This document shows positions 28,931-54,978 of a stretch of 64,000 nucleotides of DNA, in pieces (the first letter of the stretch is position 1; each line of letters begins with the position of its first letter). The stretch is from Burkholderia lata (GTDB lineage: Bacteria; Pseudomonadota; Gammaproteobacteria; Burkholderiales; Burkholderiaceae). The position numbers and the translations under genes are program-made. The notes under the pieces are model-generated. The model did no database searches and had not been told where the DNA came from. It saw only the letters and a program-made list of their open reading frames with translations. The stretch lies in NCBI RefSeq assembly GCF_000012945.1, contig NC_007509.1, forward strand, positions 992,001 to 1,056,000. Direction: 5' to 3'.

Positions 28931-29794
28931 CTATACGCTGTCCACCACGCCGTCCGCCACACGGTTCGTCCGCGCGGTCACTTCGCGGCGATAGCGGTTC
29001 AGTTCCTGCGCGGACGTGAGCGTGCGCTCGAACAGGATCGACAGGTTGTGCAGGATCCGCTCGACAACCTTCTTTTCCCACTCGCCGTCGAACCGGATCT
29101 GCTCGTCGAGCCAGCGCTCGAGCCATTCCGGATCGGGCAGGCGCGACTGCACGGTGTCGCGCGGGAACAGCGCCTGGTTCACGTGCAGGTTGGTCGGGTG
29201 CAACGGCTTCTCGGTGCGGCGCGCCGACGCCATCAGCACGCCGATCTTCGCGAACGCGGCACGCGCGACGTCGCCGCAATCGTTCAGTGCCTTCTTCATG
29301 TAACGCAGGTATGCGCCGCCGTGGCGCGCTTCGTCGCGCGAGATCGTTTCGTAGATCAGCTTGATGACCGGCTCGGTGTGCCAGTCGGCCGCGCAGCGGT
29401 ACCAGTGATTCAGGCGGATCTCGCCGCAGAAATGCAGCATCAGCGTCTCGAGCGGCGGCGCCGGATCGAATTCGAAGCGCACCGCGTGCAGCTCCGCTTC
29501 GGTCGGCACCCTTTCCGGCTTGAAGCGGCGCAGGTATTCCATCAGCACGAGCGAATGCTTCTGCTCTTCAAAGAACCACACGCTCATGAACGCGGAAAAG
29601 TCGCTGTCGTGCCGGTTGTCGCGCAGGAACATTTCCGTCGCAGGCAACGCCGACCATTCGGTGATCGCATTCATCCTGATCGTCTCGGCCTGCTCGTCGG
29701 TGAGCCGCGACGCGTCGAACCGGTTCCACGGGATGTCCTTCTCCATGTCCCAGCGCACCGCTTCCAGCGACCTGAAAAGTTCCGGATAGAGCAT
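28931..29794 (-). CDS. Soluble diiron acyl-ACP desaturase-like protein
   Basis: 287 aa from MLYPELFRSLEAVRWD. Ferritin-like helices with two metal-binding repeats: EEQKH (76-80) and DEARH (154-158), plus Glu47 and Glu125 (GEIRLNHWY) as further ligands; this is the E/ExxH plus E/ExxH set of the acyl-ACP desaturase and ferritin-like oxygenase superfamily. Such enzymes activate oxygen to desaturate or hydroxylate acyl chains on a carrier protein. It follows the membrane desaturase by 61 bp on the same strand, forming the two-gene minus operon of the afc-like cluster. The exact reaction is not determined. Confidence 0.82.
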   Translation of the reverse strand: MLYPELFRSLEAVRWDMEKDIPWNRFDASRLTDEQAETIRMNAITEWSALPATEMFLRDNRHDSDFSAFMSVWFFEEQKHSLVLMEYLRRFKPERVPTEAELHAVRFEFDPAPPLETLMLHFCGEIRLNHWYRCAADWHTEPVIKLIYETISRDEARHGGAYLRYMKKALNDCGDVARAAFAKIGVLMASARRTEKPLHPTNLHVNQALFPRDTVQSRLPDPEWLERWLDEQIRFDGEWEKKVVERILHNLSILFERTLTSAQELNRYRREVTARTNRVADGVVDSV

Positions 29795-29855
29795 CGTCGT
29801 CACCGTCGTTGAAAAACATTCGGGCGCGGCACGCACGCGGGCAGCACCGCCTCGG

Positions 29856-30851
29856 TCATGCCGATTGCGTGGACGCCGGCGCCGCCGCTTCCGCGTCGGG
29901 CGCACGGTCGTCCGCGTCGTCGTCCACCGTACGCGGCGACAGCCTGCCGCGCAGCAGCGCGTAATAGAACTGCCGGTACGTGCGGTGGTAGTAGCGAATG
30001 CGCGGCCCGATTGCGCCATGCAGGTCGTGCAACCGTTCGATCGGCAAGTTCGGCATCATGTGGTGCTCGACGTGATAGTTGTTGCCGTTCGTGAACCACG
30101 TCATGAACGCATTGCTCTCGATCGTCCGCGTGTTGCGGAACGGATCGGTGCTCGTCAGGTCGCAGCGGTAATGCTCGGGCATCTCGACCAGCGCATGCAC
30201 GGGTGCGGCCACGAACACGAGCGGCACGACCCACACCCACACGACGAACCACGTGTGCAGCGCGAACGACACGCCGGCGAGCAGCGCGATCGCCGCGACC
30301 ATCAGCAGGTGATCGCGGCGGATCGCGCGCGACACCAGCGGGTTGTCGCCGAAGCGTGCGCCCGGCACGACGAGCTTCGCGACGTTCTTCGCGAACTGGA
30401 TATAGTGCGCGGCCATCGACAGCCGCCACACCCACAGCCCGAGATTCACGACGGGACTCGCGCCGTACTGGTCGCCGTAGTCGAAGAACTCCTTGTTCTC
30501 CGGCGTGCCGAGCAGCCGGTGATGGCGCAGGTGGCTGTCCTGGTACGCATGGAACGACACGAGCATCGGCATGCCGAGCAGCACACCGAACACCATGTTG
30601 AGCCGCTTGCTCCTGAACCCCTGGTAATGCAGCGCCTGGTGCTGCAGCTCGACGCCGTGCGCGTACATCGCGCCGATCAGCAGGATGCCGACGACCTTCA
30701 GGACCACAACCGTCGACAGCGCGAACAGCATGCCGTGCGCGATGAGCGCGACGTAGACCGCGAGCTTCAGTGAGAAGACGACGCCGCTCGGGCGGCTCTT
30801 CATGTCGGCAACCGGTTTCTGACGGGCGAGAAGCGATGAGGTGACGGACAA
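29856..30851 (-). CDS. Membrane fatty acid desaturase
   Basis: 331 aa. Three histidine boxes of integral-membrane desaturases are visible: HQALH (71-75), HAYQDSHLRHH (101-111) and YHVEHH (259-264). Membrane helices lie between them. TTG at 30851 is chosen as start because AAGGAGAG precedes it by six bases; Met17 is an in-frame ATG alternative. It would introduce a double bond in an acyl chain at the inner membrane. First gene of the divergent minus operon; one of the original afc genes is, as I recall, desaturase-like. Confidence 0.88.
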   Translation of the reverse strand: MSVTSSLLARQKPVADMKSRPSGVVFSLKLAVYVALIAHGMLFALSTVVVLKVVGILLIGAMYAHGVELQHQALHYQGFRSKRLNMVFGVLLGMPMLVSFHAYQDSHLRHHRLLGTPENKEFFDYGDQYGASPVVNLGLWVWRLSMAAHYIQFAKNVAKLVVPGARFGDNPLVSRAIRRDHLLMVAAIALLAGVSFALHTWFVVWVWVVPLVFVAAPVHALVEMPEHYRCDLTSTDPFRNTRTIESNAFMTWFTNGNNYHVEHHMMPNLPIERLHDLHGAIGPRIRYYHRTYRQFYYALLRGRLSPRTVDDDADDRAPDAEAAAPASTQSA

Positions 30852-31221
30852 AATGCTCTCCTTGGCCGGACCCTGCCCGGCACGATGACGCGGCGACACT
30901 GGCGCGCTGCCGGGTTGCAATTCTTCTGTGAGTCGATGCTTCGGACAAGCGAATTTTCCGAACGCATTGCATGACGCCCGCGCATGAGCGCACCACATCG
31001 TGAACTAGACGACCGGTCGAATGCGTACCGACCATTCACCTCGCGCGGGCTCACACGTATACGCACATGGCAACGCCGAGTGGATGCGTGCTGCTCATGC
31101 ATAGCCTGCAAATATTCCGTTTGTCGCGTCATGTCGATCCGGCAAGAATCCCCCTCACTCGACGAACGGCGCCGCCGGCACCGTGGCGCGAGCGGCCGTG
31201 TTCCTCAAGGGGAGAATCCTC
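30852..31221. promoter_or_regulatory. Divergent promoter region of the afc-like cluster
   Basis: 370 bp between the desaturase gene (minus) and the acyl-AMP ligase gene (plus). It must contain both operon promoters. It holds the inverted repeat listed separately. No clear lux-type box (CTGT-N10-ACAG) was found in it. Confidence 0.6.
30940..30962. promoter_or_regulatory. LysR-type operator candidate in the divergent promoter
   Basis: TTCGGA-N11-TCCGAA: a perfect 6-11-6 inverted repeat, the classic LTTR recognition geometry, about 90 bp upstream of the desaturase start and 260 bp upstream of the ligase start. The spacer is AT-rich (GCGAATT). The natural ligand is the adjacent ShvR-like regulator. 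Confidence 0.55.
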
Positions 31222-32985
31222 GTGACGAAGTGCGCATCCACCATTCATCGCCTGATCGAATCGCTCGAGGACGTCGCGGGCGCCATGCATCGCATGACGT
31301 TCGTCGACGACGCCGGCAACGAGGCGAGCATCACGTACCGGCGCTTCGCGGAAGAAGTGTTTCGCCAGGCCGGCGCGCTGCGCGAACTCGATGTGCGCGA
31401 GAACGACCTGGTGATGCTGGCCTTGCCCGCGTCGGTCGAGCACGCAGCCGCGATGATGGCCTGCGTGATGACGGGCGCACTGCCCTGCACCGTGCCCGTT
31501 CCCGCGCGCCGCGCCACCACCGGGCGCCAGGTGATCGACGTCGCTTGCGAGCTGTACCGGCCGCGCCTCGTCATCGCCGCGGACGCGCAATCGGCCGCAT
31601 GGCGCGACGACGCGTTTCCCGCTTCATCCACGCGGGTCGTCGATCTCGACACGCTGTCGATCGTCGCGGATGCCGGTGCACGTGCGCTGATCAGCGGGAA
31701 GCATGGCCGCGATCCGCATCATGTCCAGCTCACGTCGGGCTCGACATCGCATCCGAAGGCCGCGGTACTCAGCCACGAGAACGTGATCGCGAACGTGCTC
31801 GGCATCGGCGGGTCGGTGCGGTTCGACCTCGCGGCCGGCGACGGCACCGCGTCGTGGCTGCCGCTCTATCACGACATGGGGCTGCTCACGCTGCTGTCGA
31901 ACATGCATTACCGCGCGCCGCTGCTGATGATGCAGCCGAACAGCTTTATCCGGAATCCGCTCGGCTGGTTGAAGCGCATCGCGTCGGCACGCGCAACGAC
32001 GACGTCGGTGCCGACCTTCGCGCTGCGCTATTGCGTGCGCCGTTTCAATGCCGCCGCGATGGAAGGCGTTGATCTTTCCGCGTGCCGCAACATCTTCATC
32101 GGCGGCGAACGCGTGGACGACGCGACGCTGCGCGACTTCACCGCGACGTTCGAACCGTACGGCCTCGCGGCATCGGCGCTGCAGCCGTGCTACGGAATGG
32201 CCGAATCGACGCTTGCGGTGTCGATGCATCGTGCGTGGCACGAAGGCACGGTCGATGGCGCGCCGTACGTGATCGCCGATACGCTCGACCGGCGCGCGCT
32301 GATCGAGCGCCGCGACGCGCAACCGGCCGCCGCGAACGACGGCGCCGACACCGACACCGAAACCGTGCTCGCGATGGGCACGCCGATCGAAGGCATGGCG
32401 TTCCGGATCCTGGACGACGGCGACCACCCGCTGGCGAACCGCGCGGTCGGCGAAGTCGCGATCCGCGGCACGTCGGTGATGCTCGGCTACCTGAATCCCG
32501 ACGATGGCTCGATCGCCGCACCGCTGACGGCCGACGGCTGGTTCCGCACCGGCGACATCGGCTACGTCGCCGACGGCCAGCTCCATATCCTCGGGCGCAA
32601 GAAGGAAGTCATCATCATTCGCGGCAGCAACTACTTCCCGCATGAAATCGAGGAAGCGCTGGCCTCCCATCGCACACTGCGCAAGAGCACCTGCATCGCG
32701 TTCGGGCTGCCCGACCCCGAGACCGGCACCGAGCGGCTGGTCGTCGCGATCGAGGCGCGGCCGGTCGATGCGACGCCGCAGACGCGCGCCGAGTGCCAGC
32801 AGCTGCTCGCATCGCGGATCGGTTTCGCCGCGCAGGATCTGTGCTTCGTCGAACCCGGCTCGCTGCCGCGCACGACGAGCGGCAAGCTGCAACGCCTGAA
32901 GTGCCGCGACCTCTATGCGAACGGCGCGCTGTCCGTCATCCACGCAACGGCCGCCGCCGAAGCCGGCCAGGGAGCGTACGCATGA
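31222..32985 (+). CDS. Fatty acyl-AMP ligase (FAAL-like)
   Basis: 587 aa from GTG at 31222 (TKCASTIHRLIES), preceded by AAGGGGAG; upstream in-frame starts lack a site. ANL superfamily signatures: QLTSGSTSHPKAAVLSHEN (about 169-187), the core motif with the non-canonical STSHPK form common in FAALs, YGMAESTLAVS, WFRTGDIGYVADGQL and C-terminal TTSGKLQRLK. FAALs activate free fatty acids as adenylates and load them on acyl carrier proteins; the ACP at 38111 is the obvious acceptor. First gene of the plus-strand operon. Confidence 0.9.
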   Translation: MTKCASTIHRLIESLEDVAGAMHRMTFVDDAGNEASITYRRFAEEVFRQAGALRELDVRENDLVMLALPASVEHAAAMMACVMTGALPCTVPVPARRATTGRQVIDVACELYRPRLVIAADAQSAAWRDDAFPASSTRVVDLDTLSIVADAGARALISGKHGRDPHHVQLTSGSTSHPKAAVLSHENVIANVLGIGGSVRFDLAAGDGTASWLPLYHDMGLLTLLSNMHYRAPLLMMQPNSFIRNPLGWLKRIASARATTTSVPTFALRYCVRRFNAAAMEGVDLSACRNIFIGGERVDDATLRDFTATFEPYGLAASALQPCYGMAESTLAVSMHRAWHEGTVDGAPYVIADTLDRRALIERRDAQPAAANDGADTDTETVLAMGTPIEGMAFRILDDGDHPLANRAVGEVAIRGTSVMLGYLNPDDGSIAAPLTADGWFRTGDIGYVADGQLHILGRKKEVIIIRGSNYFPHEIEEALASHRTLRKSTCIAFGLPDPETGTERLVVAIEARPVDATPQTRAECQQLLASRIGFAAQDLCFVEPGSLPRTTSGKLQRLKCRDLYANGALSVIHATAAAEAGQGAYA

Positions 32986-33692
32986 CGGCCACCCCACTCA
33001 CGCCGGTGCTCGAACTGCGCGACGTCTCGCGCGTGTACGAGGGCGCGGGCCGCGTCGTCGCGGTGCGCGGCGCGACGATCTCGATCGGCCAACGCGATGT
33101 CGTCGCGCTCGTCGGCCCGTCGGGCAGCGGCAAGAGCACGCTGCTCAACCTGGCCGGCTTTCTCGACGTGCCGAGCAGCGGCGAACGCTGGCTCGAAGGC
33201 CGCCGGATCGACGATGCGCCGGACACGCTCGAACGGATTCGCCGCGAGCGCATCGGCTTCGTGTTCCAGCAGTTCAACCTGATACCGGTGATGTCGGCGC
33301 TCGAGAACGTCGAGCTCGGCTGCTTCGCGTGGGGCACGCCGCGCACGCGCCGCGAGCGCGCCCGCGCGATGCTCGACGCGGTGGGGCTCGCCGCGCGCGA
33401 ACGCCATCTCCCCGGCGAGCTGTCCGGCGGCGAGCAGCAACGGGTCGCGCTGGCCCGCGCGCTCGCCAAGGAGCCGGCGATCGTGATCGCGGACGAACCG
33501 ACCGCCAGCCTCGACAGTACCAACGCACGCGCGGTGGCCGAGCTGATCCTCGACACCAACCGCACGCTGGGCACCGCCTTTCTGATTGCGTCGCACGACG
33601 ATCGTCTGTGCGCGCACCTGCCGCGTCGCATCGAGATGCGAGACGGCGTACCGGGAGAGAATCGTGAACTGGTCGACGTTTGCGTGGCGTAA
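32982..33692 (+). CDS. ABC transporter ATPase, LolD/MacB type
   Basis: 236 aa. Walker A GPSGSGKST (45-53), Q-loop FVFQQFNLIP, signature LSGGEQQRVALARAL, Walker B IVIADEPTASLD and the H-loop IASHDD. The subfamily works with FtsX-type permeases to move lipoproteins, lipids or small molecules out of the inner membrane rather than importing. ATGA overlap with the ligase; its stop lies 29 bp inside the permease gene. Confidence 0.93.
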   Translation: MTATPLTPVLELRDVSRVYEGAGRVVAVRGATISIGQRDVVALVGPSGSGKSTLLNLAGFLDVPSSGERWLEGRRIDDAPDTLERIRRERIGFVFQQFNLIPVMSALENVELGCFAWGTPRTRRERARAMLDAVGLAARERHLPGELSGGEQQRVALARALAKEPAIVIADEPTASLDSTNARAVAELILDTNRTLGTAFLIASHDDRLCAHLPRRIEMRDGVPGENRELVDVCVA

Positions 33693-34881
33693 CCTCTGGC
33701 GCAACAAGCGCCGCACCGTGCTGACGATGGCGATGATCGGCGTCGCCGCGTTCGCGTCGAGCCTCGCGCTCGGCTATGTGATCGCGACCTTCGACGCGGT
33801 GCGCGAAGGGTCGATCGACAGTGGCGTCGGCCACGTGCAGGTGCTGCACCACGGCTATCTCGACCTGATCGGCGAGCGGCCGCTGCAGTACGGGCTGACC
33901 GCCGACGAACAGGCCACCGCGACGCACGCGATCGCGGCGCTGCCCGGCGTCGCGACCACCGCGCGCGGCATCGACTTCGACGGGCTGATCTCGAACGGCG
34001 ATCTCAGCTACGGCTTCGTCGGCGAAGGCATCGAGCCGAACCGCGAGCCGCCCGGGTTCTTCGACTATCACACGGTGCTGTCGGGCCGCTACCTGTCGCC
34101 AACGAATCCCGGCACCGAAGTCGTCGTCGGCGCGGAACTCGCGCGCAAGCTCGGCGTGCACGTCGGTTCGGTCGTGCAGCTGATGGCGTCGACCGCGCAT
34201 GGCGGCATCAACGCGACCGATGCGCAGATCGTCGGCGTGATGAGCACCGGCAACAAGGACGTCGACGAGCGGATCGTCAACGTGACGTTCACCGCCGCGC
34301 AGGCGCTGCTGCGCACCGACCGCGCGTCGCGCATCGCGGTGTTCCTGTCGGACACCGCACACACGCCGGCCGCCGCCGCGACGCTACGCGCCGCGCTGCC
34401 GACGCTCGACGTGAAGACCTGGGACCAGCTCGTGTCGCTCTATCACCAGGTCGTCGCGCTGTACAAGAACCAGTTCTCGGTGTTCGGCGCGATTCTCTGC
34501 CTGACGATCCTGCTGTCGATGAGCAACTGGATCCTGATGAGCATCGTCGAACGCCGCCGCGAGATCTCGACGCTGCGCGCGCTCGGCGTGCCGGCCGCCA
34601 CGGTGCGTGGCGTGCTGATCCAGGAGACCGCCTTCCTCGGCCTGCTTGGCGCGGCCGCCGGCATCGCGGTGGCGCTGCTGACGATGGTCGCGCTCAATCA
34701 CGCGCAGATCCACCTGCCCCCGCCGCCCGGCCGCGTGAAGTCGATCCTGCTCGAATTCACGGTCTCGCCGGCCGCCGTGGCCGCCGTCGAAGGCGCGTTC
34801 GTCGTGCTCGGGGTGGCTGCCGCGCTGCTCGCGACGCTCGGGCTCGCCAAACGCAACATCCTCGAAGGACTCGCCCCATGA
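33664..34881 (+). CDS. FtsX/LolE-type ABC permease
   Basis: 405 aa from GTG at 33664 with GGGAGAGA upstream. One N-terminal helix (about 18-40), a periplasmic domain of about 230 residues, then three C-terminal helices. MSNWILMSIVERRREISTLRALGVPAATVRGVLIQE is the FtsX-domain signature of LolC/E and MacB. With the ATPase and the downstream LolA-like protein this forms a Lol-like extraction device, probably for the lipid product of the cluster. Confidence 0.92.
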   Translation: MNWSTFAWRNLWRNKRRTVLTMAMIGVAAFASSLALGYVIATFDAVREGSIDSGVGHVQVLHHGYLDLIGERPLQYGLTADEQATATHAIAALPGVATTARGIDFDGLISNGDLSYGFVGEGIEPNREPPGFFDYHTVLSGRYLSPTNPGTEVVVGAELARKLGVHVGSVVQLMASTAHGGINATDAQIVGVMSTGNKDVDERIVNVTFTAAQALLRTDRASRIAVFLSDTAHTPAAAATLRAALPTLDVKTWDQLVSLYHQVVALYKNQFSVFGAILCLTILLSMSNWILMSIVERRREISTLRALGVPAATVRGVLIQETAFLGLLGAAAGIAVALLTMVALNHAQIHLPPPPGRVKSILLEFTVSPAAVAAVEGAFVVLGVAAALLATLGLAKRNILEGLAP

Positions 34882-35618
34882 TTCGCATTCGCCACCTGGC
34901 CGCCGCGCTCGTCGCATGCGCGCCGCTCGTTCATGCCGCCGACGCCCCGACGGCCCAGACCATGCTCGCCCGTGCCGACGCGTACCGCAGCACGGCCGCC
35001 GATACGCAGACGAACATCCAGATCACGAACGAAGTCGGCGGACAGTCCGGCGATGCGACGCGTTATCTCGTCTACACGCGCGGCAACGGCGACACGCTCG
35101 CGCTGACGCGCAGCGGCGAGAACGACGGGCAGAAATACCTCGCGACGACGCGTGGCCACTGGTTCTACGTGCCGAACACACGCAGCGCGGTCCGCATCAA
35201 CGGGATGCAGCGGCTGCAGGGCGAGGTCGTGATCAGCGACATCACGCGCACGCACTGGGCGGACAGCTATCACGCAGCGGCAGCGGCCGGCGCGACGACG
35301 ATCGCCGGCAAACCGGCCACCGAGCTCGACCTGACCGCGACCGATCCCGACAACGTCTACCCGACGATCAAGCTGTGGGTCACGCCCGACACCGACGTGC
35401 CGGTGCGCGCGCAGTTCTTTCTTGCCAGCGGCCTGCTGTTTCGCAGTGCAGATTTCTCGACACCGGTCGATGCCAACGGGCGCAAGGTGATTCGCAAGAT
35501 CACGTATCGCAACGAGATCGAAAAGCAGCGCGCGAGCGTCGTCGACATCCTCGACGGCCAGCCGCGCAAGATTCCGTCGGGCTGGTTCAACCCCGACACG
35601 CTTGCCGATGGCCAGTGA
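34878..35618 (+). CDS. LolA-like periplasmic protein (outer membrane lipoprotein-sorting family)
   Basis: 246 aa with a signal peptide (cleavage near residue 20, LVHA-AD). TMLARADAYRSTAADTQTNIQI and KYLATTRGHWFYVPNTRSAVRI, followed by repeated beta-strands and KLWVTPDTDVPVRAQFFLASG, fit the LolA/LolB half-barrel fold of the 'outer membrane lipoprotein-sorting protein' group. Family members carry acylated cargo across the periplasm. ATGA overlap with the permease supports a joint function. Confidence 0.82.
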   Translation: MIRIRHLAAALVACAPLVHAADAPTAQTMLARADAYRSTAADTQTNIQITNEVGGQSGDATRYLVYTRGNGDTLALTRSGENDGQKYLATTRGHWFYVPNTRSAVRINGMQRLQGEVVISDITRTHWADSYHAAAAAGATTIAGKPATELDLTATDPDNVYPTIKLWVTPDTDVPVRAQFFLASGLLFRSADFSTPVDANGRKVIRKITYRNEIEKQRASVVDILDGQPRKIPSGWFNPDTLADGQ

Positions 35619-36927
35619 CCACGACGCCCATGTCGACGCCCATCGTGACCGCCTCCGTCCATCATCCGGCCGCATCTGGCCCGCCGCCGTGCTCGCCGTC
35701 CCGCTCGCGCTCGGCTGCACGCTCGCGCACGGAGAATCGCTGATGGAACAGTTGAGCACGCTGAACGGCATCGCTTACGCACGCACCGTCGACAGCATGG
35801 ACGGGCACGCGCTGCTAGGGAACCTGATCGGCGACCAGCCGCGCAACCTGCAGGAAGCGGGCCTGCTCGCACGCATCGACGGCGAGAACCTGTTCATGAA
35901 CGCGCGTGCCGTGGCCAGCAACCACTCGCTCGGCGCGCAGGCCACCCGCTTCAACGAGGCCGGCGTGCGCTATGCGTTCGACAACGGCATCACGCTGACC
36001 GCCGGCAAGCGGATCGATCCGCTCGACACGTCGCAAGCGTTCTTTCCGCTCGGCTTCTTCCAGAAGCGCGCCGCGACGGCCGACATCTACGACCGCTACG
36101 GCGACGTCGAAGGCACGCCGCTCGTCGAAGCGAAATGGGCCGGTGAACAGACCACGCTGCAGATCATCGCCGGTGAAAACCGCACGCTGCGCAGCGACGT
36201 CGACAACCGCGACGTGCAGGGCGCGACGCAGCTCGTGCGCGGTGCGTACAACTGGTCGGGCGGCTCGGCCGCGTTGCTCGCCGGCCGGCATGCGGGCCGT
36301 GGCGGCGCCGGTGCGACGCTGTCGTTCGACGTCGCGCGCTCGAACACCGTCTATGCGAGCGCGTGGCTCGAGCGCGGCACGACGCGGCCGCTGCCGGCCT
36401 TCATCGCGAACGGCACGCCACTCGATTCGCCCGCCGCGTACGACGCGGTCGATCGCCGCAATGACCGCCAATACATGTGGCGCAGCGCGGTCGGCATGCA
36501 AAGCGCGCTGCCCGGCAACTTCTCGCTGATCGTCGAGTGGTCGCACGACGAGGCACGTTACGACGCGAACCAGTGGCGCCAGATGGTCGGCGCGGTCCGC
36601 GCGAACAATGCGCTGCTGCCTGTCGCACCCGGCGCCGCGTTGGGCGGCCTCGGCGGCACGGCCGATTTCGTGAGCGTCGACGGCAACCTGCGCGACTACC
36701 TGTTCGCACGGCTCGGCAAGAAGATCGGCCGCGTCGAGTACTCGCTGCGCGGCGTCTATTCGCCGCAGGACAAGGGCCTGCTTGCGATCGCGCAGGTCGT
36801 CGCCGACGTGAACAAGCGCGTAAGCGTCGATGTCGCGGTCACCCGCGCGTTCTCCGACAGCAACTCCGAGTACCGGATGGTCGGTCTCGGCACCCGTATC
36901 GACGCCGCCGTGCGCGTGCGCTTCTGA
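35608..36927 (+). CDS. Outer-membrane beta-barrel protein
   Basis: 439 aa from ATG at 35608. Hydrophobic segment AAVLAVPLALGCTLAHGES after a 25-residue hydrophilic lead is a long signal sequence. The mature part has alternating strands with aromatic girdle residues (NLFMNARAVASNHSL, GVRYAFDNGITLTAGKRIDP, VEYSLRGVYSPQ) and ends RVRF, a C-terminal phenylalanine typical of barrel insertion by BAM. It overlaps the LolA-like gene by 11 bp, giving a route inner membrane-periplasm-outer membrane. No named family was recognised. Confidence 0.72.
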   Translation: MASDHDAHVDAHRDRLRPSSGRIWPAAVLAVPLALGCTLAHGESLMEQLSTLNGIAYARTVDSMDGHALLGNLIGDQPRNLQEAGLLARIDGENLFMNARAVASNHSLGAQATRFNEAGVRYAFDNGITLTAGKRIDPLDTSQAFFPLGFFQKRAATADIYDRYGDVEGTPLVEAKWAGEQTTLQIIAGENRTLRSDVDNRDVQGATQLVRGAYNWSGGSAALLAGRHAGRGGAGATLSFDVARSNTVYASAWLERGTTRPLPAFIANGTPLDSPAAYDAVDRRNDRQYMWRSAVGMQSALPGNFSLIVEWSHDEARYDANQWRQMVGAVRANNALLPVAPGAALGGLGGTADFVSVDGNLRDYLFARLGKKIGRVEYSLRGVYSPQDKGLLAIAQVVADVNKRVSVDVAVTRAFSDSNSEYRMVGLGTRIDAAVRVRF

Positions 36928-36942: not shown

Positions 36943-38052
36943 ATGTCCACGCTTTCCGTTCCCGCTTCGTCCGCCGACCCGCTCGCGACTGCACCGCTGC
37001 TGCTGCGCGTGGCCGACCAGGCCGCGTATCCGGTACTGCGCCACTTCGACACGATCGCGTCGCTCGGCACGCCGCCGCGCGCGGCCGCCCGGCTGGTTGA
37101 AGCCGCCGCCGTGCGGCTGCTCGACAGCGAGATGGTGATCGCGCTGCATGCGGCCACGCCGGACGTGCTGCCCGATTCGTCCGCGTCGACGCCGCTGCAA
37201 CACGACGAAGCGCCGCTCACCGAAGCGCTGCTCGAACAGATCGGCCGCGAGGGCTTCCATCACCTGTTCAAGCCGTTCATGCGCGCATTCATCCGCATCA
37301 TGTTCGGGTTGTTCTTCTCGGACGACCAGAACCGTCGCGCATGCGACTGCATCGACAGCGGCCACAACTTCGCGTTCCTGATGAGCGACGGCGGCGGCCC
37401 GACGCTCGCCGCATGGCGCACGGTCGTGCGCAGCGACGACAACGGCCTCGCGCTCACCGTCGACAAGGTATGGGGCATCGAAGCGCATCGCGACTGCATG
37501 GCGGTGGTCGCCGCGCGGTTGCCGGGCGTGATGTTCCCGGCCGCCTACCTCGTGTGGCCCGACGAGTACCGCAAGCTGAAACGCATGACCTGCGGCGCGC
37601 CGTTCCTCGCGGGCAACCTGCAGCTCGCGAACGTCGGCGGCCAGGTGCGCGTGAGCGCCGAGGATCGCCTGCGGATCGGCGGCCCGACCGTGTTCAACAA
37701 ATACCTGACCGTCGTGCGCCCCTACTTCGTCCGCGCGCTGATGGCGCACGTCGACTGGCTCGAACGCACCGGCCGCGTCGAACTCGATGCCGACGCACGC
37801 GCCGTACACCAGTTCATCGCCGACGCCGCCCGTAGCCAGACCGACGACGCGCACTACAGCTTCGGCAAGGTGCAGCGCGTGCTCGCGATCAAGCTGCTGT
37901 CGAACGAGTTCCTGACGGCGCTCGTGCGCGACGGCAGGGTCGCCACTTTCGACGACCAGCGCGACCTGCTGGCGTTTTCGAAGATGGAAGGCAGTTCGTA
38001 CCGTTGTTATCACGAGCTTCGCAAGAGCCTGCGCTGCGAAGCCGGCAGTTGA
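36943..38052 (+). CDS. Divergent acyl-CoA dehydrogenase-like protein
   Basis: 369 aa. The middle part (DGGGPTLAAWRTVVRSDDNGLALTVDKVWGIEAHRDCMAVVAARL) resembles the acyl-CoA dehydrogenase beta-domain, where 'T-x-A ... G-x-K-x-W-I' contacts FAD and substrate. GGPTVFNKYLTVVRPYFVRALM begins the helical C-terminal domain. The usual catalytic glutamate motif near the C-terminus was not found, so it may be inactive or use another base. It is the sixth gene of the plus operon, just before the ACP. Confidence 0.55.
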   Translation: MSTLSVPASSADPLATAPLLLRVADQAAYPVLRHFDTIASLGTPPRAAARLVEAAAVRLLDSEMVIALHAATPDVLPDSSASTPLQHDEAPLTEALLEQIGREGFHHLFKPFMRAFIRIMFGLFFSDDQNRRACDCIDSGHNFAFLMSDGGGPTLAAWRTVVRSDDNGLALTVDKVWGIEAHRDCMAVVAARLPGVMFPAAYLVWPDEYRKLKRMTCGAPFLAGNLQLANVGGQVRVSAEDRLRIGGPTVFNKYLTVVRPYFVRALMAHVDWLERTGRVELDADARAVHQFIADAARSQTDDAHYSFGKVQRVLAIKLLSNEFLTALVRDGRVATFDDQRDLLAFSKMEGSSYRCYHELRKSLRCEAGS

Positions 38053-38110: not shown

Positions 38111-38365
38111 ATGACGACCCAGAACGTTCCGGCCGACGCGCTCGACATCCTGTCCCGCGAAGTCGCGAAGATCCTCAATGTCGAGACCGTCGACACCGAC
38201 GCCGGCATCGGCGAACTCGGCATCGATTCGCTGAACATCGTCGAACTGATCGTGTTCTGCGAACAGCTCTACGGTTCGATCGATCCGGAAGCGCTGAACA
38301 TCACGCAGTACACGACGCTGCAGCAGCTCGACGCGCAACTGCGCCGCCAGCAGCACGCCGCCTGA
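38111..38365 (+). CDS. Acyl carrier protein
   Basis: 84 aa. The phosphopantetheine site is LGIDSLNIVEL with Ser40; acidic helix II follows. Stand-alone type II carrier, preceded by AGGAGCTCCTCTC before the ATG. It most likely holds the acyl chain activated by the FAAL at 31222 while desaturases and KAS III-like enzymes work on it. Confidence 0.93.
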   Translation: MTTQNVPADALDILSREVAKILNVETVDTDAGIGELGIDSLNIVELIVFCEQLYGSIDPEALNITQYTTLQQLDAQLRRQQHAA

Positions 38366-45712: not shown

Positions 45713-47562
45713 TGAGCGCCTACAAGGTGAGCCTGCGCGAATTGCGCTTCTTTCTGTGGGAACTGTTCGAAGCCGACAAGCGGTTCCTGGCGGAACACAG
45801 CCTGTACGGTACGCACGACCGCGCGTCGATCGACGCGCTGCTCGAACGCGCACGCGATTTCGCACTCGACCTGGGCCGCAGCTACCAGCAGGCGGACGTC
45901 GAGGGCTGCACGCTGCTCGACGACGGCCAGGTACGCATTCCGTCGCATTTCCACGCGCTGTGGGCGCGCTTTCGCGACGAATGGTCGAACACGCTGTTCG
46001 GCACCGCGCACGGGCTGCCGCCGATCGTCACGCAGATGATCTACGAGATGTTCATGGGCGCGAACCCGTCGTTCATGACTTACGGCGGCTTCACGCGCCC
46101 CGCGATCAAGCTGCTGCAGATGCACGGCACGCCGCACCAGAAGGCGCTGATCGCACCGCTCGAGGCGTACCGCTGGGATGCCTGCTTCTGCGCGACCGAA
46201 CCGCAGGCCGGCACCGATCTCACCGCGGTCGCGCTTCGCGCGACGCCGCTCGAACGCGACATCTACGCCGTTGACGGCGAGAAGGTCTACATCTCGGCCG
46301 GCATGCACGAGCTGACCGAGAACACACTGTATTTCGTGCTCGGCCGCATCGACACCGCGTCGCCGGACTCGTTCTCGCTGTCGTGCCTCGTCGTGCCGCG
46401 CTTCTGGCCGGACGAGGAAACGGGCGAACTGCAGTCGAACCATGTCGACTGCATCGGCCTGCCGCGCAAGATGGGGCTCAAGGGCTGCGCGAACACGCAC
46501 CTGGTGTTCGGTTCGAACGGCACGACCAAAGGCTGGCTGCTCGGCGGCCGGCGCAACGTCGGCCTGCTGCAGCTGATGCCGCTGATGAACCAGGCGCGGA
46601 TGAGCACCGGGATGTTCGGCGTCGGCGTCGCGTCGAGCGCGTACCTGCATGCGGTCGAGTATGCGGGCCGCCGGCTGCAGGGCCGGCCGATCGAGCGCGC
46701 GTCGAACACCAATGCGGCACGCGTCGCGATCGTCGAGCACGCGGACGTGCAGCGCATGCTGGTCGACATGAAGAGCCGCGTCGACGGCTGCCGCGGCCTG
46801 CTCGGCAAGCTCGCCGCGACCGCCACGCGCGCGGCGATGCTCGAAGCGACGCCCGACGCCGACCCGGCCGAGATCGAGCGTCACCGCAAGCTCCAGTTGC
46901 TGCTCACGCCGATCTGCAAGGCGTTCATCTCCGACCAGGCGTGGCGGATCTGCGAATCCGCGATCCAGGTGCACGGCGGGCTCGGTTATACCGATGCGAG
47001 CCCCGTCGAGCAGAACGCGCGAGACGTGAAGATCCTGTCGATCTGGGAAGGCACGAACTACATCCAGGCGCAGGATCTCGTGCGCGACAAGCTCGGCTTC
47101 GGCCGTCATTCGCGACTGATCCAGTACTACCGCGACGAACTCGACGTGTTCCTCGCGCGCCAGCATCACACCGGCACGCATGCGGAGCTGCGCCCGCTGT
47201 TCGATGCGCTGCGCACGGGCGCCGACCGGATCGCCGCCGCGCTCGACGACATTGCGCGCGACGTGCAGGACGGTCACACGCACCGCAGCAGCCAGTTCTA
47301 CACGCGCTTTCTCGAGATGTTCGGCGTCGTCACGTCGGCGTGGGTGCTGCTCGAATCGGCGACGATCGCCGCGCGCCGGCTCGACGCGCCGGACACCGCC
47401 GACACGCCGGCCGAACTCGCGTTCTATCGCGGCAAGCTGAAAAGCGCGCGCTACTACTTCGCGAACGTGCTGCCCGTCGTCGACCAGCACGCGGCCGTGA
47501 TCGCCGCGATGGCGCATGCGGCGATCAGCGTCAGCAGCGAAGAACTCGCGCAGGTGGAATGA
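45712..47562 (+). CDS. Acyl-CoA dehydrogenase (large, FadE/DmdC-like)
   Basis: 616 aa. ACFCATEPQAGTDLT is the FAD/substrate beta-domain motif; MGLKGCANTHLVF and a C-terminal catalytic segment VEQNARDVKILSIWEGTNYIQAQDLV follow; the extra C-terminal helical domain (about 460-616) is that of DmdC-like, 600-residue dehydrogenases. Family members oxidise acyl-CoA at alpha-beta; here an ACP-bound chain is possible. Start codon overlaps the previous stop (TGATG). From memory, AfcE of B. cenocepacia is described as an acyl-CoA dehydrogenase and would correspond to this or the 36943 gene. Confidence 0.9.
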   Translation: MSAYKVSLRELRFFLWELFEADKRFLAEHSLYGTHDRASIDALLERARDFALDLGRSYQQADVEGCTLLDDGQVRIPSHFHALWARFRDEWSNTLFGTAHGLPPIVTQMIYEMFMGANPSFMTYGGFTRPAIKLLQMHGTPHQKALIAPLEAYRWDACFCATEPQAGTDLTAVALRATPLERDIYAVDGEKVYISAGMHELTENTLYFVLGRIDTASPDSFSLSCLVVPRFWPDEETGELQSNHVDCIGLPRKMGLKGCANTHLVFGSNGTTKGWLLGGRRNVGLLQLMPLMNQARMSTGMFGVGVASSAYLHAVEYAGRRLQGRPIERASNTNAARVAIVEHADVQRMLVDMKSRVDGCRGLLGKLAATATRAAMLEATPDADPAEIERHRKLQLLLTPICKAFISDQAWRICESAIQVHGGLGYTDASPVEQNARDVKILSIWEGTNYIQAQDLVRDKLGFGRHSRLIQYYRDELDVFLARQHHTGTHAELRPLFDALRTGADRIAAALDDIARDVQDGHTHRSSQFYTRFLEMFGVVTSAWVLLESATIAARRLDAPDTADTPAELAFYRGKLKSARYYFANVLPVVDQHAAVIAAMAHAAISVSSEELAQVE

Positions 47563-50582: not shown

Positions 50583-50595
50583 CGGGATGCCGACG

Positions 50596-51609
50596 ATGAA
50601 CCCCTCGTTCCTCGCTTCCGTGCGCGCGATGGTCGGCCCGCACACTGCATTCGACCGGCCGCAGCGCTCGGGCACGCAGCCGCTGCCCGATGCGCACGCG
50701 CCCGGCGCGGCGCTCGGCGCACGCGCGATCGACGTCGCGGCCGGCGATTTCCGTTTTTCCGCGCGGCATGTGCGGTTCCGGCTCGGCGCGATCACCGCGA
50801 TCGTCGGGCCGAACGGCTCCGGCAAGACCACGCTGCTCGAAACGCTGCTCGGCTTCCGGCGCGGCGGCACCGACGTGCGCGTGCTCGACGTGCCGGCCAC
50901 CCGCTTCATGCGCGATACGCCGTCGCTGCGGCGCATCGGCGCACAATTGCAGAAGGTCGAATATCCCGACCATCTCCGCGTGTCGGAGATCGTCGCGCTG
51001 CACCGCGCGATGTACGTGCGCGCGGACGCCGCGGTCACGGATGCGCTCGGCATCGCCGAACTGCTCGACAAGCCGTGTCGCGCGCTGTCGAAGGGGCAAC
51101 GCCAGCGCGTCGATCTCTACGTCGCGCTCGCGCACCGGCCCGAACTGGCCGTGCTCGACGAACCGTTCACCGGCCTCGACCGTCGTTATGCGGGTGTCGT
51201 GATCGACCTGCTGCGCCACCGTGCGCACGGCGCGAGCGTCGCGATGATCTGCCACGCCGAGGAAGAACTCGCCGTCGTCGACGATCTCGTATGGGTGCGT
51301 GACGGCGGCGTGCGCTACCAGGGCGACAAGGACGCGCTGCGTGCCGAACTCGTCGGCGAAGCGCGCGCGGTCCTGCATTGCCGCGACGAAGCCGACGCGC
51401 GTGCGTTGCGCAAGCGGCTCGCCGCGCTGCCGGGCGTGACCGGCGTGCGCGTGTCGGCCGCGCATGTCGTCGAGGTGTTCGGCGATGCGACGCTGCATCC
51501 GAACGTGCACCGGATCGTCGGCGAACAGGGCATCCAGCATCTCGCGCTCGCGCCGAGCACGCCGGGCGACCTGCTGCGCCTCTGTACCGAGGGCCCTTCC
51601 CATGACTAA
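50596..51609 (+). CDS. ABC transporter ATPase (ABC-2 exporter type)
   Basis: 337 aa. Walker A IVGPNGSGKTT, signature LSKGQRQRVDLYVAL (Gly-Gly replaced by Lys-Gly), Walker B LAVLDEPFTGLD, and H-loop reduced to ICHAEEE. The first 40 residues and the C-terminal 85 residues are extensions; the C-terminal part (VLHCRDEADARALRKRLAALPGVTGV) resembles the DrrA/CcmA-type regulatory tail. ATG at 50587 is an alternative start. It overlaps the permease by 8 bp. Confidence 0.9.
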   Translation: MNPSFLASVRAMVGPHTAFDRPQRSGTQPLPDAHAPGAALGARAIDVAAGDFRFSARHVRFRLGAITAIVGPNGSGKTTLLETLLGFRRGGTDVRVLDVPATRFMRDTPSLRRIGAQLQKVEYPDHLRVSEIVALHRAMYVRADAAVTDALGIAELLDKPCRALSKGQRQRVDLYVALAHRPELAVLDEPFTGLDRRYAGVVIDLLRHRAHGASVAMICHAEEELAVVDDLVWVRDGGVRYQGDKDALRAELVGEARAVLHCRDEADARALRKRLAALPGVTGVRVSAAHVVEVFGDATLHPNVHRIVGEQGIQHLALAPSTPGDLLRLCTEGPSHD

Positions 51610-52681: not shown

Positions 52682-52739
52682 CACCGCACCGTGTCCGATG
52701 TTTCGACGTTACGACGTTTCGACGAAGGAGAATCCCCCG

Positions 52740-53282
52740 ATGAAATCGAGCAATCCCATCACTGACTACCTGCTGCACGCGAGCAACTTCCTGCCGGCGA
52801 TCGTGTTCCTGTTCTACGGCCGGCTCGGCCCCGAACAGCCGGACGTACGCTGGACGCACGCGTTCCTGATCGGCGGCGTGCTCGCGCTCGTGCACGGCGC
52901 ATGGCTGATCCGCCGCGCGGACCGCAACAGCATTGCGATCGGCGTCGACCTGTTCCTCGTGATCGGCGCGGTGCTGGCACTCGTGTCGCCGACAGGTAGC
53001 CGTTTGTGGGGCGAGGAACTCGGGCCGGCCGCGATGCTCGTCTGCGTGCTGGTCGTCGGCATCGTGCATACCGCGTGGTCGGAAGGCGGTTTCGTCGACG
53101 GCGCGTTCGTCGACCACGGACGCGTGCGTTCGCTGTCGATCGTGCTGCTCGCGGTCACCGTCGTCGCGCTCGCGGTGTCGATCACGATGCGCCACAGCCC
53201 GCTGTGGGGCGGCGTCGTGCCGCTGATCGCGCTGGTCGTCGTGCGCGGCCGCCTGCGCAAGCAGCTCGTGCGGGCCGGCTGA
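52740..53282 (+). CDS. Small integral membrane protein
   Basis: 180 aa with five or six hydrophobic helices (FLPAIVFLFYG; AFLIGGVLALVHGAWLI; SIAIGVDLFLVIGAVLALV; AAMLVCVLVVGIVHTAW; LSIVLLAVTVVALAVSI). AAGGAGAA precedes the ATG. No named family recognised. Its place between exporter and oxidase genes suggests a membrane-bound role in tailoring or export. Confidence 0.8.
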   Translation: MKSSNPITDYLLHASNFLPAIVFLFYGRLGPEQPDVRWTHAFLIGGVLALVHGAWLIRRADRNSIAIGVDLFLVIGAVLALVSPTGSRLWGEELGPAAMLVCVLVVGIVHTAWSEGGFVDGAFVDHGRVRSLSIVLLAVTVVALAVSITMRHSPLWGGVVPLIALVVVRGRLRKQLVRAG

Positions 53283-53284
53283 CG

Positions 53285-54703
53285 ATGAGCGCGCTGCCCG
53301 ACCGCGCCGCGCAGCGGCATGCGCTCGCCGCGACGCTCGGCGACGGCTGGCTCGACGGTGCATCTTCTGACGCGTGTTCTTCGTATGTAACGGATGTGGC
53401 ACTCCACGGCGGCATCGCGCTCGGCGTCGCGCGGCCGGCCTCGACCGCCGACACGAGCGCGCTCGCGCGGGTCGCCGTCGCGCACCGCATCGCGCTCGTC
53501 GCGCAGGGCGCGCGCACCGGGCTCGTCGGCGCCGCGGTGCCCGATCGCAGCGGCACGCAATGCGTGGTGTCGTTCGACCGGATGCGCACCGTGCGCGCGT
53601 TCGATGCGGCGAATCGCAGCATCACGGTCGAAGCCGGCGCGCGGCTGTCGGACATCAACCGCGTGGCGGCCGAAGCCGGCCTCTGCCTGCCGATCGACCT
53701 CGGCAGCGATCCGTCGGCCGGCGGCCTCGTCGGCGCCAACGCGGGCGGCAGCCGCCTGATCAAGTACGGCGACGTGCGCCGCAACGTGCTCGGCGTCGAA
53801 GTCGTGCTCGCCGACGCGGCGGGTACCGTGATCGACGCGCTCGCGCCGCTGCGCAAGCGCAACACGGGCTTCGACGTCACGCAATGCTTCATCGGCGCGA
53901 ACGGCGCCAACGGGCTCGTGACGGCCGTGTCGTTCGCGCTCGCGCCGCTCGAACGGTCGTCGTGCGCGGCGTTCGTTGCGTTTGCGTCGTACGACGCGGC
54001 GCTCGCCGGCCTGCTCGCGTTCGAGCGTGCGTTCGGCGAGATGCTGTCGGCGTTTGAATTCATGTCGGCGGCGGCCGTCGGCTGCGTCGCCGCCGCGTAT
54101 CCCGCGGCGCGCATTCCGTTCGAAGCCGACGCTGCCGCATGCTACGCGCTTGTCGAGATCGCGACCGGCATGCCGGGGCTCGATGCGCTGCTCGAGGAAC
54201 GCACGATCGCGACGCTCGACGCGCTGGCGAGCGAGCGCGTAGTGCTCGACGCCGCCTGCGCACCGGCCGAACGATTCTGGCGGATCCGCGACGCACTGCC
54301 GGCCGCGGTTGCGCAGGACGGCCTTCCGCTGTCGTTCGACGTGTCGTTTCCGCGCGGCGCACTGGCTGCTTTCGTCACCGATGCCGAGCAGTGGCTCGCA
54401 GCCGCGCATCCGTCACTGCGCTGTCACACGTTCGGCCATTTCGGCGACGGCGGCTGCCATCTCGTCGTGTCGATCCCGCACGCCAGTGCGGACCGCTACG
54501 GGCCGCTGCAGCAGGTGGCGCTGCGCGGCGCGCTGTACGACCGCGTGGTGCGGGCCGGAGGCTGCTTCAGCGCCGAGCATGGCGTCGGGCCGGTCAACGT
54601 CGCGTACTACCGCAAGCATGTGCCGGCCGCACAACGGCAGGTCGCCGCCGCTATCCAGCATGCCGTCGACCCGCTGGGTCTGATCGGGCGTGTCCGCTAT
54701 TGA
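53285..54703 (+). CDS. FAD-linked oxidase (GlcD / D-2-hydroxyacid dehydrogenase type)
   Basis: 472 aa. FAD-binding PCMH domain: VAQGARTGLVGAAVP, then DPSAGGLVGANAGGSRLIKYGDVRRNVLGVEVVL; C-terminal cap with the metal/active-site motif HTFGHFGDGGCHLVVSIP and SAEHGVGPVN. These are marks of D-lactate and D-2-hydroxyglutarate dehydrogenases, which oxidise 2-hydroxyacids to 2-oxoacids. It starts 2 bases after the membrane protein gene. From memory AfcF of B. cenocepacia is an FAD-dependent oxidase at the end of the cluster, which fits this gene. Confidence 0.9.
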   Translation: MSALPDRAAQRHALAATLGDGWLDGASSDACSSYVTDVALHGGIALGVARPASTADTSALARVAVAHRIALVAQGARTGLVGAAVPDRSGTQCVVSFDRMRTVRAFDAANRSITVEAGARLSDINRVAAEAGLCLPIDLGSDPSAGGLVGANAGGSRLIKYGDVRRNVLGVEVVLADAAGTVIDALAPLRKRNTGFDVTQCFIGANGANGLVTAVSFALAPLERSSCAAFVAFASYDAALAGLLAFERAFGEMLSAFEFMSAAAVGCVAAAYPAARIPFEADAAACYALVEIATGMPGLDALLEERTIATLDALASERVVLDAACAPAERFWRIRDALPAAVAQDGLPLSFDVSFPRGALAAFVTDAEQWLAAAHPSLRCHTFGHFGDGGCHLVVSIPHASADRYGPLQQVALRGALYDRVVRAGGCFSAEHGVGPVNVAYYRKHVPAAQRQVAAAIQHAVDPLGLIGRVRY

Positions 54704-54735
54704 TGCGCCGTTGCGCGGCGCCACGGAGAATTCGC

Positions 54736-54978
54736 ATGATCCTTCGACATCCGCCCGGCCCGGGTACCGCCTCCGAACCGGATGCCGACCCGCCGTACTC
54801 CGGCATCCCGGCCACGCTGCCCGCCTCGGGGGTCGTGGTCAACGTGCGAGGGGTGGCGTACGTGATCCAGCTGCCGCCGCGCGATCATGCGCGCCCGGCG
54901 CTGTGGCGCGAACTTGAGGATTGGCGCGACGACCGGTCGGCGGGCGGCAACGGCGAGCCGGAGGCGCGGCAGGATTGA
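54736..54978 (+). CDS. Small protein of unknown function at the operon end
   Basis: 80 aa from MILRHPPGPGTASEPD, with GGAGAA five bases upstream of the ATG. The middle ASGVVVNVRGVAYVIQLPPRDHARPALWRELEDW could form a small beta-hairpin and helix; both ends look disordered. It follows the FAD oxidase by 32 bp and precedes the terminator, so it is probably co-transcribed. No family recognised. Confidence 0.6.
   Translation: MILRHPPGPGTASEPDADPPYSGIPATLPASGVVVNVRGVAYVIQLPPRDHARPALWRELEDWRDDRSAGGNGEPEARQD

What the first reader, a model, noticed from the sequence alone, without database searches (positions are those of the whole stretch)
28931..54978. Large afc-like lipid biosynthesis and export cluster with an undefined product
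About 25 contiguous genes combine a fatty acyl-AMP ligase, stand-alone ACP, three KAS III-like proteins, three desaturase/diiron proteins, a decarboxylase-ligase pair, citrate-synthase-like, methyltransferase, 2OG oxygenase and FAD oxidase with two exporters, but no NRPS or modular PKS. From memory this is the ShvR-regulated afc locus linked to antifungal activity and colony morphology, for which I know no settled structure. The enzyme set predicts an unsaturated acyl chain joined to an oxidised, possibly methylated polar head.
Basis: partly seen in the sequence, partly recalled or inferred. Interest (0 to 1): 0.85.

Follow-up and report, generated by a model that had tools for sequence, protein, structure and literature searches.

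The report
Known antifungal lipopeptide (afc) gene cluster
This is the known afc gene cluster of Burkholderia, which makes the antifungal lipopeptide AFC-BC11 (structure published in 2025) without a normal peptide synthetase; comparison with relatives shows clusters of the same design in Pseudomonas, Chromobacterium and Trinickia and suggests roles for some of its unassigned enzymes.

Summary
The gene inventory is right: 24 afc genes plus an 80-aa ORF lie at exactly 28931-54978, beside shvR, in a Burkholderia genome. 'Undefined product' is out of date: AFC-BC11 was solved in 2025 (PMC12186527) as an N-acyl tetrapeptide (methoxy-malate-ended unsaturated acyl chain, three dehydro-beta-alanines, dehydro-lysine), built by a stand-alone A domain, one carrier protein, a fatty acyl-AMP ligase and a KAS III-like transferase. 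Published AfcK Ser40 and AfcL Cys111 sit at the same positions here. The locus itself is already known.

The parts
   Evidence: PF00126 and PF03466; 88-99% identical copies in 16 other afc-bearing genomes of the genus
28931..29794 (-). afcD, acyl-ACP-desaturase-like diiron protein
   Evidence: PF03405; 89% identical to its bol counterpart
29856..30803 (-). afcC, membrane fatty-acid-desaturase-fold enzyme; lysine desaturation in the published knockout
   Evidence: PF00487; best NCBIfam match GntB L-arginine gamma-hydroxylase, far below its cut-off
31183..32985 (+). afcA, fatty acyl-AMP ligase that acylates the tri-beta-alanyl carrier (published assay with myristate)
   Evidence: PF00501; PDB matches include fatty acyl-adenylate ligase
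32982..33692 (+). afcB, ABC ATPase (BCAS0221 equivalent)
   Evidence: PF00005; naming from PMC2753556 passages. Called 'G' in the matrix
33664..34881 (+). afcG (letter by order), FtsX/MacB-like permease
   Evidence: PF12704, PF02687. Called 'H' in the matrix
34878..35618 (+). afcH (letter by order), LolA-like periplasmic protein
   Evidence: PF17131. Called 'B' in the matrix
35689..36927 (+). afcI, outer-membrane protein (published label)
   Evidence: no Pfam or NCBIfam hit; present in 13 clusters including the window
36943..38052 (+). afcJ, divergent acyl-CoA-dehydrogenase-fold protein; inferred second carrier-tethered dehydrogenase
   Evidence: no Pfam or NCBIfam hit; AlphaFold model pLDDT 74.9; best Foldseek PDB match TcsD, E 5e-8, TM 0.54, then FkbI and ColB1 among acyl-CoA dehydrogenases
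38111..38365 (+). afcK, sole acyl/peptidyl carrier protein, Ser40
   Evidence: PF00550; Ser40 in 25 of 25 aligned sequences
38373..39257 (+). afcL, KAS III-like peptidyl transferase, Cys111
   Evidence: Cys111 in 25 of 25 aligned sequences; role from PMC12186527
39259..39882 (+). afcM, protein of unassigned fold, needed for production (published knockout)
   Evidence: no Pfam, NCBIfam or PDB-sequence hit; model pLDDT 71.5, no Foldseek match at E<=0.001
39884..40867 (+). afcN, AurF-like diiron enzyme
   Evidence: PF11583; 69-99% identical in the other 23 clusters of this design
40871..41860 (+). afcO, KAS III-like enzyme, Cys130
   Evidence: weak KAS III hits; Cys in 25 of 26, Ser only in bol
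41850..43025 (+). afcP, PLP-dependent decarboxylase of aspartyl-AfcK (published assay)
   Evidence: PF02784, PF00278
43050..44624 (+). afcQ, stand-alone A domain, L-Asp specific (published assay)
   Evidence: PF00501; Arg309 and Lys501 here (published Arg311 and Lys503); Arg in 26 of 26, Lys in 25 of 26 with one gap
44621..45712 (+). afcR, KAS III-like protein with Thr157 at the nucleophile position
   Evidence: Thr in 24 of 26 aligned sequences; published label
45712..47562 (+). afcE, acyl-CoA-dehydrogenase-like; dehydro-beta-alanine formation by homology to BolQ
   Evidence: PF00441 and PF12806
47564..48802 (+). afcS, citrate-synthase-like
   Evidence: PF00285; aligned with a 390-aa citrate-synthase-family protein of the same genome
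48843..49505 (+). afcT, SAM O-methyltransferase
   Evidence: PF08241
49509..50582 (+). afcU, TauD-type 2OG oxygenase; inferred 2-hydroxylation of the chain's carboxyl end
   Evidence: PF02668; PDB matches
50587..51609 (+). afcV, ABC ATPase (BCAS0204 equivalent)
   Evidence: PF00005
51602..52681 (+). afcW, ABC-2 permease
   Evidence: PF12698
52740..53282 (+). afcX, small protein of unknown role, membrane(-associated) in the published list
   Evidence: no family hit; conserved next to W or U in relatives
53285..54703 (+). afcF, FAD-linked 2-hydroxyacid-dehydrogenase-like oxidase
   Evidence: PF01565, PF02913; second-best PDB match D-2-hydroxyglutarate dehydrogenase, E 4e-54, after an unnamed oxidoreductase
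54736..54978 (+). 80-aa ORF, probable BCAS0200 equivalent, role unknown
   Evidence: 45% over 40 residues at the same edge in two related clusters; 49% beside a relic shvR-afcC pair

Best explanation
The locus is an intact afc biosynthetic cluster that makes AFC-BC11 or a very close congener. Shown by others (PMC12186527): AfcQ adenylates L-Asp and loads it iteratively onto AfcK; AfcP decarboxylates the bound units to beta-alanine; AfcA acylates the carrier-bound tri-beta-alanine (shown with myristate); AfcL takes oligo-beta-alanine as a thioester and passes it to lysyl-CoA; knockouts show that AfcC desaturates the lysine and that AfcS, AfcF and AfcT are needed for the methoxy-malate end of the acyl chain. 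AfcE is assigned there to dehydro-beta-alanine formation by homology to BolQ, whose deletion leaves beta-alanine in bolagladins (PMC7756342). My inferences: (1) AfcJ is a second carrier-tethered dehydrogenase used with AfcE on the tri-beta-alanine unit, and J, L and M together take the place of an NRPS. (2) The polar end is made in the order 2-hydroxylation (AfcU, or AfcN), oxidation to a 2-oxo acid (AfcF), citrate-synthase-like addition of acetyl-CoA (AfcS), O-methylation (AfcT), probably on the chain or carrier rather than as free citrate. (3) AfcB/G/H/I is a Lol-like route across the envelope and AfcV/W a second ABC exporter. The confidence given is for the identity of the cluster and its product; inferences 1 to 3 are each about 0.5.
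For: Gene set, order, flanks and anchors match. Named residues match. DNA is 91.6-95.4% identical to nine Burkholderia records over about 21 kb of the cluster. shvR and afcC each occur in 19 of 19 genomes with an afc-type afcS in the genus search. Inference 1: afcJ, afcL and afcM are in 24 of 24 clusters of this design, the window included, and absent from the one bol cluster; the AfcJ model matches TcsD, FkbI and ColB1; the published afcJ knockout makes no AFC-BC11. Inference 2: the published afcS and afcF mutants give the same two masses, which equal a C18:1 diacid chain and its monohydroxy form on the same peptide; the keto acid plus acetate plus methyl gives exactly AFC-BC11. AfcF lies in a 2-hydroxyacid dehydrogenase family. 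AfcE-AfcS is one ORF in six of six Pseudomonas records.
Against: No metabolite data exist for this strain. The formulae of inference 2 also fit a citryl or oxaloacetyl starter (PMC7756342) and coupling of citryl-CoA to the finished chain's methyl end (PMC12186527). AfcS keeps the residues that I recall as catalytic and oxaloacetate-binding, and BolR made citrate from free oxaloacetate, so a pocket for a chain-bound substrate is not shown. G035 has afcS, afcT and afcU but no afcF in its cluster; its best AfcF-like protein is 37% identical and elsewhere. The divergent Pseudorhodoferax cluster has AfcL-like proteins but no afcJ or afcM was found in the stretches read. AfcJ's structural matches have TM-scores of only 0.4-0.6. 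AfcM has no assignable fold.
Confidence: 0.93

Rival explanations
1. Rival to inference 2: the acyl head is made first. AfcS makes citryl-CoA, or condenses acetyl-CoA with oxaloacetyl-CoA; a KAS III-like protein (AfcO or AfcR) primes fatty acid synthesis with it; the finished chain is then loaded by AfcA.
For: Proposed for bolagladin (PMC7756342); BolR forms citrate in vitro; AfcO and AfcR are in all 25 clusters that have AfcS; the carbon count fits.
Against: Gives AfcF, a 2-hydroxyacid-dehydrogenase-like enzyme, no role unless it acts on malyl-CoA; the AfcE-AfcS fusion links AfcS to a carrier-bound step; AfcA activates plain C14 acid and not the C14 diacid tested (PMC12186527).
Confidence: 0.4
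2. The locus makes a lipid without a peptide (acyl chain plus modified polar head).
For: No modular NRPS or PKS.
Against: AFC-BC11 is an N-acyl tetrapeptide, and AfcQ, AfcP and AfcK assemble oligo-beta-alanine (PMC12186527); the key residues are conserved here.
Confidence: 0.02
3. The locus is a bolagladin-type cluster.
For: 13 of its 24 afc genes have a counterpart in the bol cluster of G014.
Against: No NRPS; afcJ, L, M, C, B/G/H/I and V/W/X have no counterpart in bol.
Confidence: 0.01

Closest known systems
afc cluster / AFC-BC11 of the Burkholderia cepacia complex (PMC12186527; BCAS0201-0225)
   Same: 24 genes of the same types in the same order in two divergent blocks beside shvR, same flanks, same residues where named.
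   Different: Only sequence divergence seen. afcB, listed as a pseudogene in J2315 (PMC2753556 passage), is an open frame here. Product not measured in this strain.
Bolagladin (bol) cluster (PMC7756342), seen here in genome G014
   Same: Shares A, K, N, F, D, O, P, Q, R, E, S, T, U and a ShvR-like regulator; product has a methoxy-dicarboxylate acyl end and one dehydro-beta-alanine.
   Different: Has a tetramodular NRPS; lacks J, L, M, C and both afc export sets; the AfcO counterpart has Ser instead of Cys, as the paper says for BolM.
B. pseudomallei afc-like cluster of 21 genes (BPSL0493-0473; passages of PMC5964159 and PMC6301696)
   Same: The unnamed Burkholderia genome G035 has a same-strand run of 21 genes, 17 of them afc homologues. 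PMC6301696 counts 15 of 22 shared genes for B. pseudomallei.
   Different: G035 has no C, D, F or B/G/H/I in the cluster and adds a diaminobutyrate aminotransferase, a BolF-type desaturase, an MFS transporter and one further gene. Whether G035 is of that species group was not established.

Membership tests
afc / AFC-BC11 biosynthetic cluster | 24 afc genes in two divergent blocks beside shvR | tested here: met
   anchors from passages. Transcription not tested.
afc / AFC-BC11 biosynthetic cluster | AfcK Ser40, AfcL Cys111, AfcQ substrate Arg and catalytic Lys | tested here: met
   AfcQ numbering is offset by 2.
afc / AFC-BC11 biosynthetic cluster | No condensation domain or modular NRPS | tested here: met
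   Pfam scans of all 24 proteins at E<=0.001.
afc / AFC-BC11 biosynthetic cluster | Lysine desaturase AfcC present | tested here: met
   29856-30803.
afc / AFC-BC11 biosynthetic cluster | Strain makes AFC-BC11 (m/z 734.397) | not testable with these tools
   Needs LC-MS.
bolagladin cluster | Tetramodular NRPS BolH | tested here: not met
   a 4536-aa NRPS-like protein is seen in G014 but not in the window's cluster.
modular NRPS or PKS | Condensation or ketosynthase modules | tested here: not met

The most novel reading that the evidence does not exclude
afc is one member of a family of condensation-domain-free lipopeptide pathways spread over Burkholderia, Trinickia, Pseudomonas and Chromobacterium. 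The conserved core is A, J, K, L, M, N, O, P, Q, R, E, S, T, U, nearly always with F. What varies is a C-terminal diamino-acid cassette: lysine plus the AfcC desaturase in Burkholderia afc clusters, versus a diaminobutyrate aminotransferase (with or without a BolF-type desaturase) in Trinickia, two Chromobacterium species and G035, which should put 2,4-diaminobutyrate at the C-terminus; the Pseudomonas clusters would use something else. The acyl head is built on the chain end by hydroxylation, 2-oxo formation and citrate-synthase-like aldol addition, a use of that fold on a lipopeptide intermediate. Bolagladin arose as a chimera of an afc-type half with a second, more distant half and an NRPS.
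Probability: 0.4. Interest if true: 0.6.

Novelty: already known. Interest (0 to 1): 0.33.

Why it matters
The finding turns out to be explained: the question it raised (what does afc make?) was answered in print in 2025. What that paper leaves open is the chemistry of the acyl head, who dehydrogenates the beta-alanines, why AfcJ and AfcM are essential, and how lysine is activated and released. The comparative results narrow some of this: J, L and M go with the condensation-domain-free route; AfcU and AfcF are good candidates for preparing the 2-oxo acid that AfcS attacks; and Pseudomonas and Chromobacterium species are further places to look for AFC-like antifungals.

Tried and rejected

AfcS pocket test: I expected loss of an oxaloacetate-binding arginine if AfcS acts on a chain end. 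Alignment with a 390-aa citrate-synthase-family protein of the same genome (L102) shows the motif residues retained, so the test does not favour my model. Residue roles are recalled. Row L101 of that alignment was translated in a wrong frame and L103 gave no frame; both were ignored.

Diaminobutyrate cassette: of 12 afcC-less clusters, 4 have a linked aminotransferase (G035, Trinickia, C. sinusclupearum, C. vaccinii; in C. vaccinii it is linked to afcF on a 3.8 kb contig apart from the main cluster contig), 5 do not (P. fragi, P. arsenicoxydans, P. helleri FSL R10-2339, P. saxonica, C. alticapitis) and 3 were not followed (L062, L063, L066).

Promoter scan between shvR and afcA: 0 sigma-70-like sites against 1.2 expected; no use.

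Literature searches that could have shown afc-like clusters outside the genus listed none in the held open-access library. That is no proof of absence in print; supplements could not be opened.

My gene finder, trained on the window, under-called Pseudomonas genes, so presence and absence use tblastn.

Not resolved: how the C8=C9 double bond is made, and the final release from CoA.


Full report
What is there. The window is bases 992001-1056000 of a 1,395,069-base contig in an 8.68 Mb, three-contig genome. Gene calling puts 25 genes exactly in 28931-54978: two on the minus strand, then 23 on the plus strand. A LysR gene lies just left (27324-28280), then an alpha/beta hydrolase (26295-27119) and an MFS transporter (24768-26237); to the right are DctM, DctQ and DctP transporter genes (55077-57989). 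PMC6301696 (passages) describes the same flanks for shvR-afc. PMC2753556 (passages) names BCAS0222 afcA, BCAS0221 AfcB (ABC ATPase, a pseudogene in J2315), BCAS0220 permease and BCAS0204 ABC ATPase; PMC6301696 names BCAS0208 afcE, BCAS0207 citrate synthase and BCAS0225 shvR. Counting along the window, each of these anchors falls on a gene of the right type, so the window corresponds to BCAS0201-BCAS0225. Letters G, H, W and X are assigned by order, because the supplement with the official table could not be read. Cluster DNA is 95.4% identical to Burkholderia lata R-18110 and 91.6-94.8% to eight other Burkholderia records, over the roughly 21 kb held of each; two further Burkholderia replicons cover 30000-54000 in full at 92.1% and 91.8%.

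What it makes. PMC12186527 (text parts 1-4 of 5 read; the rest of the reference list and the supplement not seen) solved AFC-BC11: C36H55N5O11, three dehydro-beta-alanines (Z, Z, E), a C-terminal gamma,delta-dehydro-lysine, and an N-terminal acyl chain with one Z double bond and an O-methyl malate end. That study reconstituted AfcQ/AfcP/AfcK iteration, AfcA acyl transfer and AfcL transfer to lysyl-CoA, and made mutants of several genes. In the window AfcK has Ser40 and AfcL Cys111 at the published positions, and AfcQ has the published Arg and Lys two positions lower. Across aligned relatives Ser40 is kept in 25 of 25, Cys111 in 25 of 25, the Arg in 26 of 26 and the Lys in 25 of 26 with one gap. 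So 'undefined product' is answered in print, while the gene inventory is right.

Relatives. A scan of named genome contigs with an AfcN alignment returned 24 loci: 11 Burkholderia, Trinickia symbiotica, six Pseudomonas, four Chromobacterium, one Pseudorhodoferax and one actinomycete MAG with only a distant AfcN. In the tblastn matrix A, J, K, L, M, N, O, P, Q, R, E and S occur in 24 of 24 clusters of this design: the window (the query itself), 11 Burkholderia, Trinickia, six Pseudomonas, four Chromobacterium and G035; L069 (divergent) and L070 are left out and bol is counted apart. T and U are in 23 of 24, the exception (L066) being cut off by its contig end. AfcF at 51-55% identity is in 8 of 8 Trinickia, Pseudomonas and Chromobacterium genomes searched; in six it lies on the cluster's contig, in C. 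alticapitis and C. vaccinii on a separate small contig. G035 has none in its cluster; its best copy elsewhere is 37%. Sampling with AfcN at E<=1e-80 found 5 of 298 Pseudomonas and 5 of 19 Chromobacterium genomes.

The bolagladin comparison. G014 holds a bol cluster: its gene order and types agree with bolA-T as described in PMC7756342 (parts 1-3 of 5 read). It has counterparts of 13 afc genes and an NRPS, and lacks J, L, M, C, B/G/H/I and V/W/X. Bolagladin has one E-configured dehydro-beta-alanine followed by an NRPS-made peptide; AFC-BC11 has three (Z, Z, E) and a lysine added without an NRPS. J, L and M are therefore natural candidates for the extra work. The AfcJ model has the acyl-CoA dehydrogenase fold, and its best PDB matches include TcsD, FkbI and ColB1, whose titles name acyl-ACP or assembly-line-tethered substrates for TcsD and ColB1. 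Against a strict J-L-M unit: the Pseudorhodoferax cluster has two AfcL-like proteins, but neither J nor M was found in the stretches read.

bol appears chimeric. In FastTree trees rooted on Pseudomonas, for A, K and N the Burkholderia afc sequences group with Trinickia and G035, and for F (8 taxa, no G035) with Trinickia, to the exclusion of bol (support 0.90-1.0). For O, P, Q, R, E, S, T and U bol instead joins the Burkholderia afc sequences, in 8 of 8 trees, with support from 0.45 (R) to 0.955 (P) and above 0.9 only in P, Q, E and U. G014 also carries a relic elsewhere: a ShvR orthologue (72%), AfcC (71%) and the 80-aa ORF (49%) side by side with the rest of afc missing. In the genus search shvR (E<=1e-90) and afcC (E<=1e-60) each occur in 20 of 65 genomes: the 19 with an afc-type cluster and G014.

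C-terminal cassette. Twelve of the 24 clusters lack afcC; in the nine of these whose genomes were searched (G035 and G065-G072) no AfcC homologue was found at E<=1e-15. Four of the twelve have a linked diaminobutyrate aminotransferase: G035, Trinickia symbiotica (74% identical to the G035 copy), C. sinusclupearum (66%) and C. vaccinii (67%, beside afcF and a BolF-type desaturase on a 3.8 kb contig). The three of these that were scanned score over the TIGR00709 cut-off. Five do not: P. fragi has no homologue at E<=1e-60, P. arsenicoxydans, P. helleri and P. saxonica have 51-52% copies on other contigs, and C. alticapitis has a 56% copy on another contig and unrelated genes after afcF. Three were not followed. 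The four genomes with AfcC that were tested had no such aminotransferase (0 of 4). I infer a lysine-to-diaminobutyrate swap in the four linked cases only.

Acyl head. The published afcS and afcF mutants yield the same two masses. Formula arithmetic shows that these equal a C18:1 diacid acyl group (m/z 646.381) and its hydroxylated form (662.376) on the same peptide; the keto acid plus acetate plus methyl gives AFC-BC11, and without methyl the afcT product. The bolR product differs from bolagladin B by the same C3H4O2. AfcF belongs to a 2-hydroxyacid dehydrogenase family, AfcU is a 2OG oxygenase, and AfcE-AfcS form one ORF of 998-1000 aa in six of six Pseudomonas records. I therefore favour hydroxylation, oxidation to a 2-oxo acid, citrate-synthase-like addition and O-methylation on the chain or carrier. 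A citryl or oxaloacetyl starter fits the atoms equally, and AfcS retains oxaloacetate-type active-site residues (roles recalled), so this remains an inference.

Verdict. Observation confirmed; interpretation partly right; the locus is already known. The comparative extensions are leads, with their limits stated.

Noticed in passing
Own genome C1 about 203-227 kb (L042 5968-20000, L043 1-9611); similar genes in G015 and, in part, G026; in G061 only the AfcS-like hit was seen: A second biosynthetic cluster with distant AfcS-like (33%) and AfcT-like (37%) proteins, a Lol-type exporter like AfcB/G/H, two ketosynthases, an ACP, FabG-like, weak dehydratase-like and nicotianamine-synthase-like hits, AMP-ligase-like proteins, MATE, GNAT and two Trp-halogenase-family flavoproteins. 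Product unknown to me.
   Followed up: partly
L106 12455-15995 (G014:C4 about 2732.5-2736.0 kb): Relic of an afc locus: ShvR orthologue, AfcC and the 80-aa ORF adjacent with the other afc genes missing, in a genome that carries bol elsewhere.
   Followed up: yes
L059-L064 (Pseudomonas): AfcE and AfcS encoded as one ORF of 998-1000 aa in six of six records.
   Followed up: yes
L069 and L099 (Pseudorhodoferax sp. Leaf274; first 11 kb of the contig not read): Divergent cluster with K, P, Q, E, N, O, R, two L-like, V and W plus FabI and FabG; no A, J, M, S, T, U or F found in the stretches read. Perhaps another carrier-based beta-alanine pathway.
   Followed up: partly
L095 7206-8807 (P. fragi), L097 12678-14210 (C. 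sinusclupearum): An aldehyde-dehydrogenase-family gene follows afcF (P. fragi) or the aminotransferase after it (C. sinusclupearum); it could oxidise a chain-end aldehyde.
   Followed up: no
window 54736-54978: The 80-aa ORF after afcF recurs at the same cluster edge in two relatives and beside the relic locus, so it is probably a real gene.
   Followed up: partly
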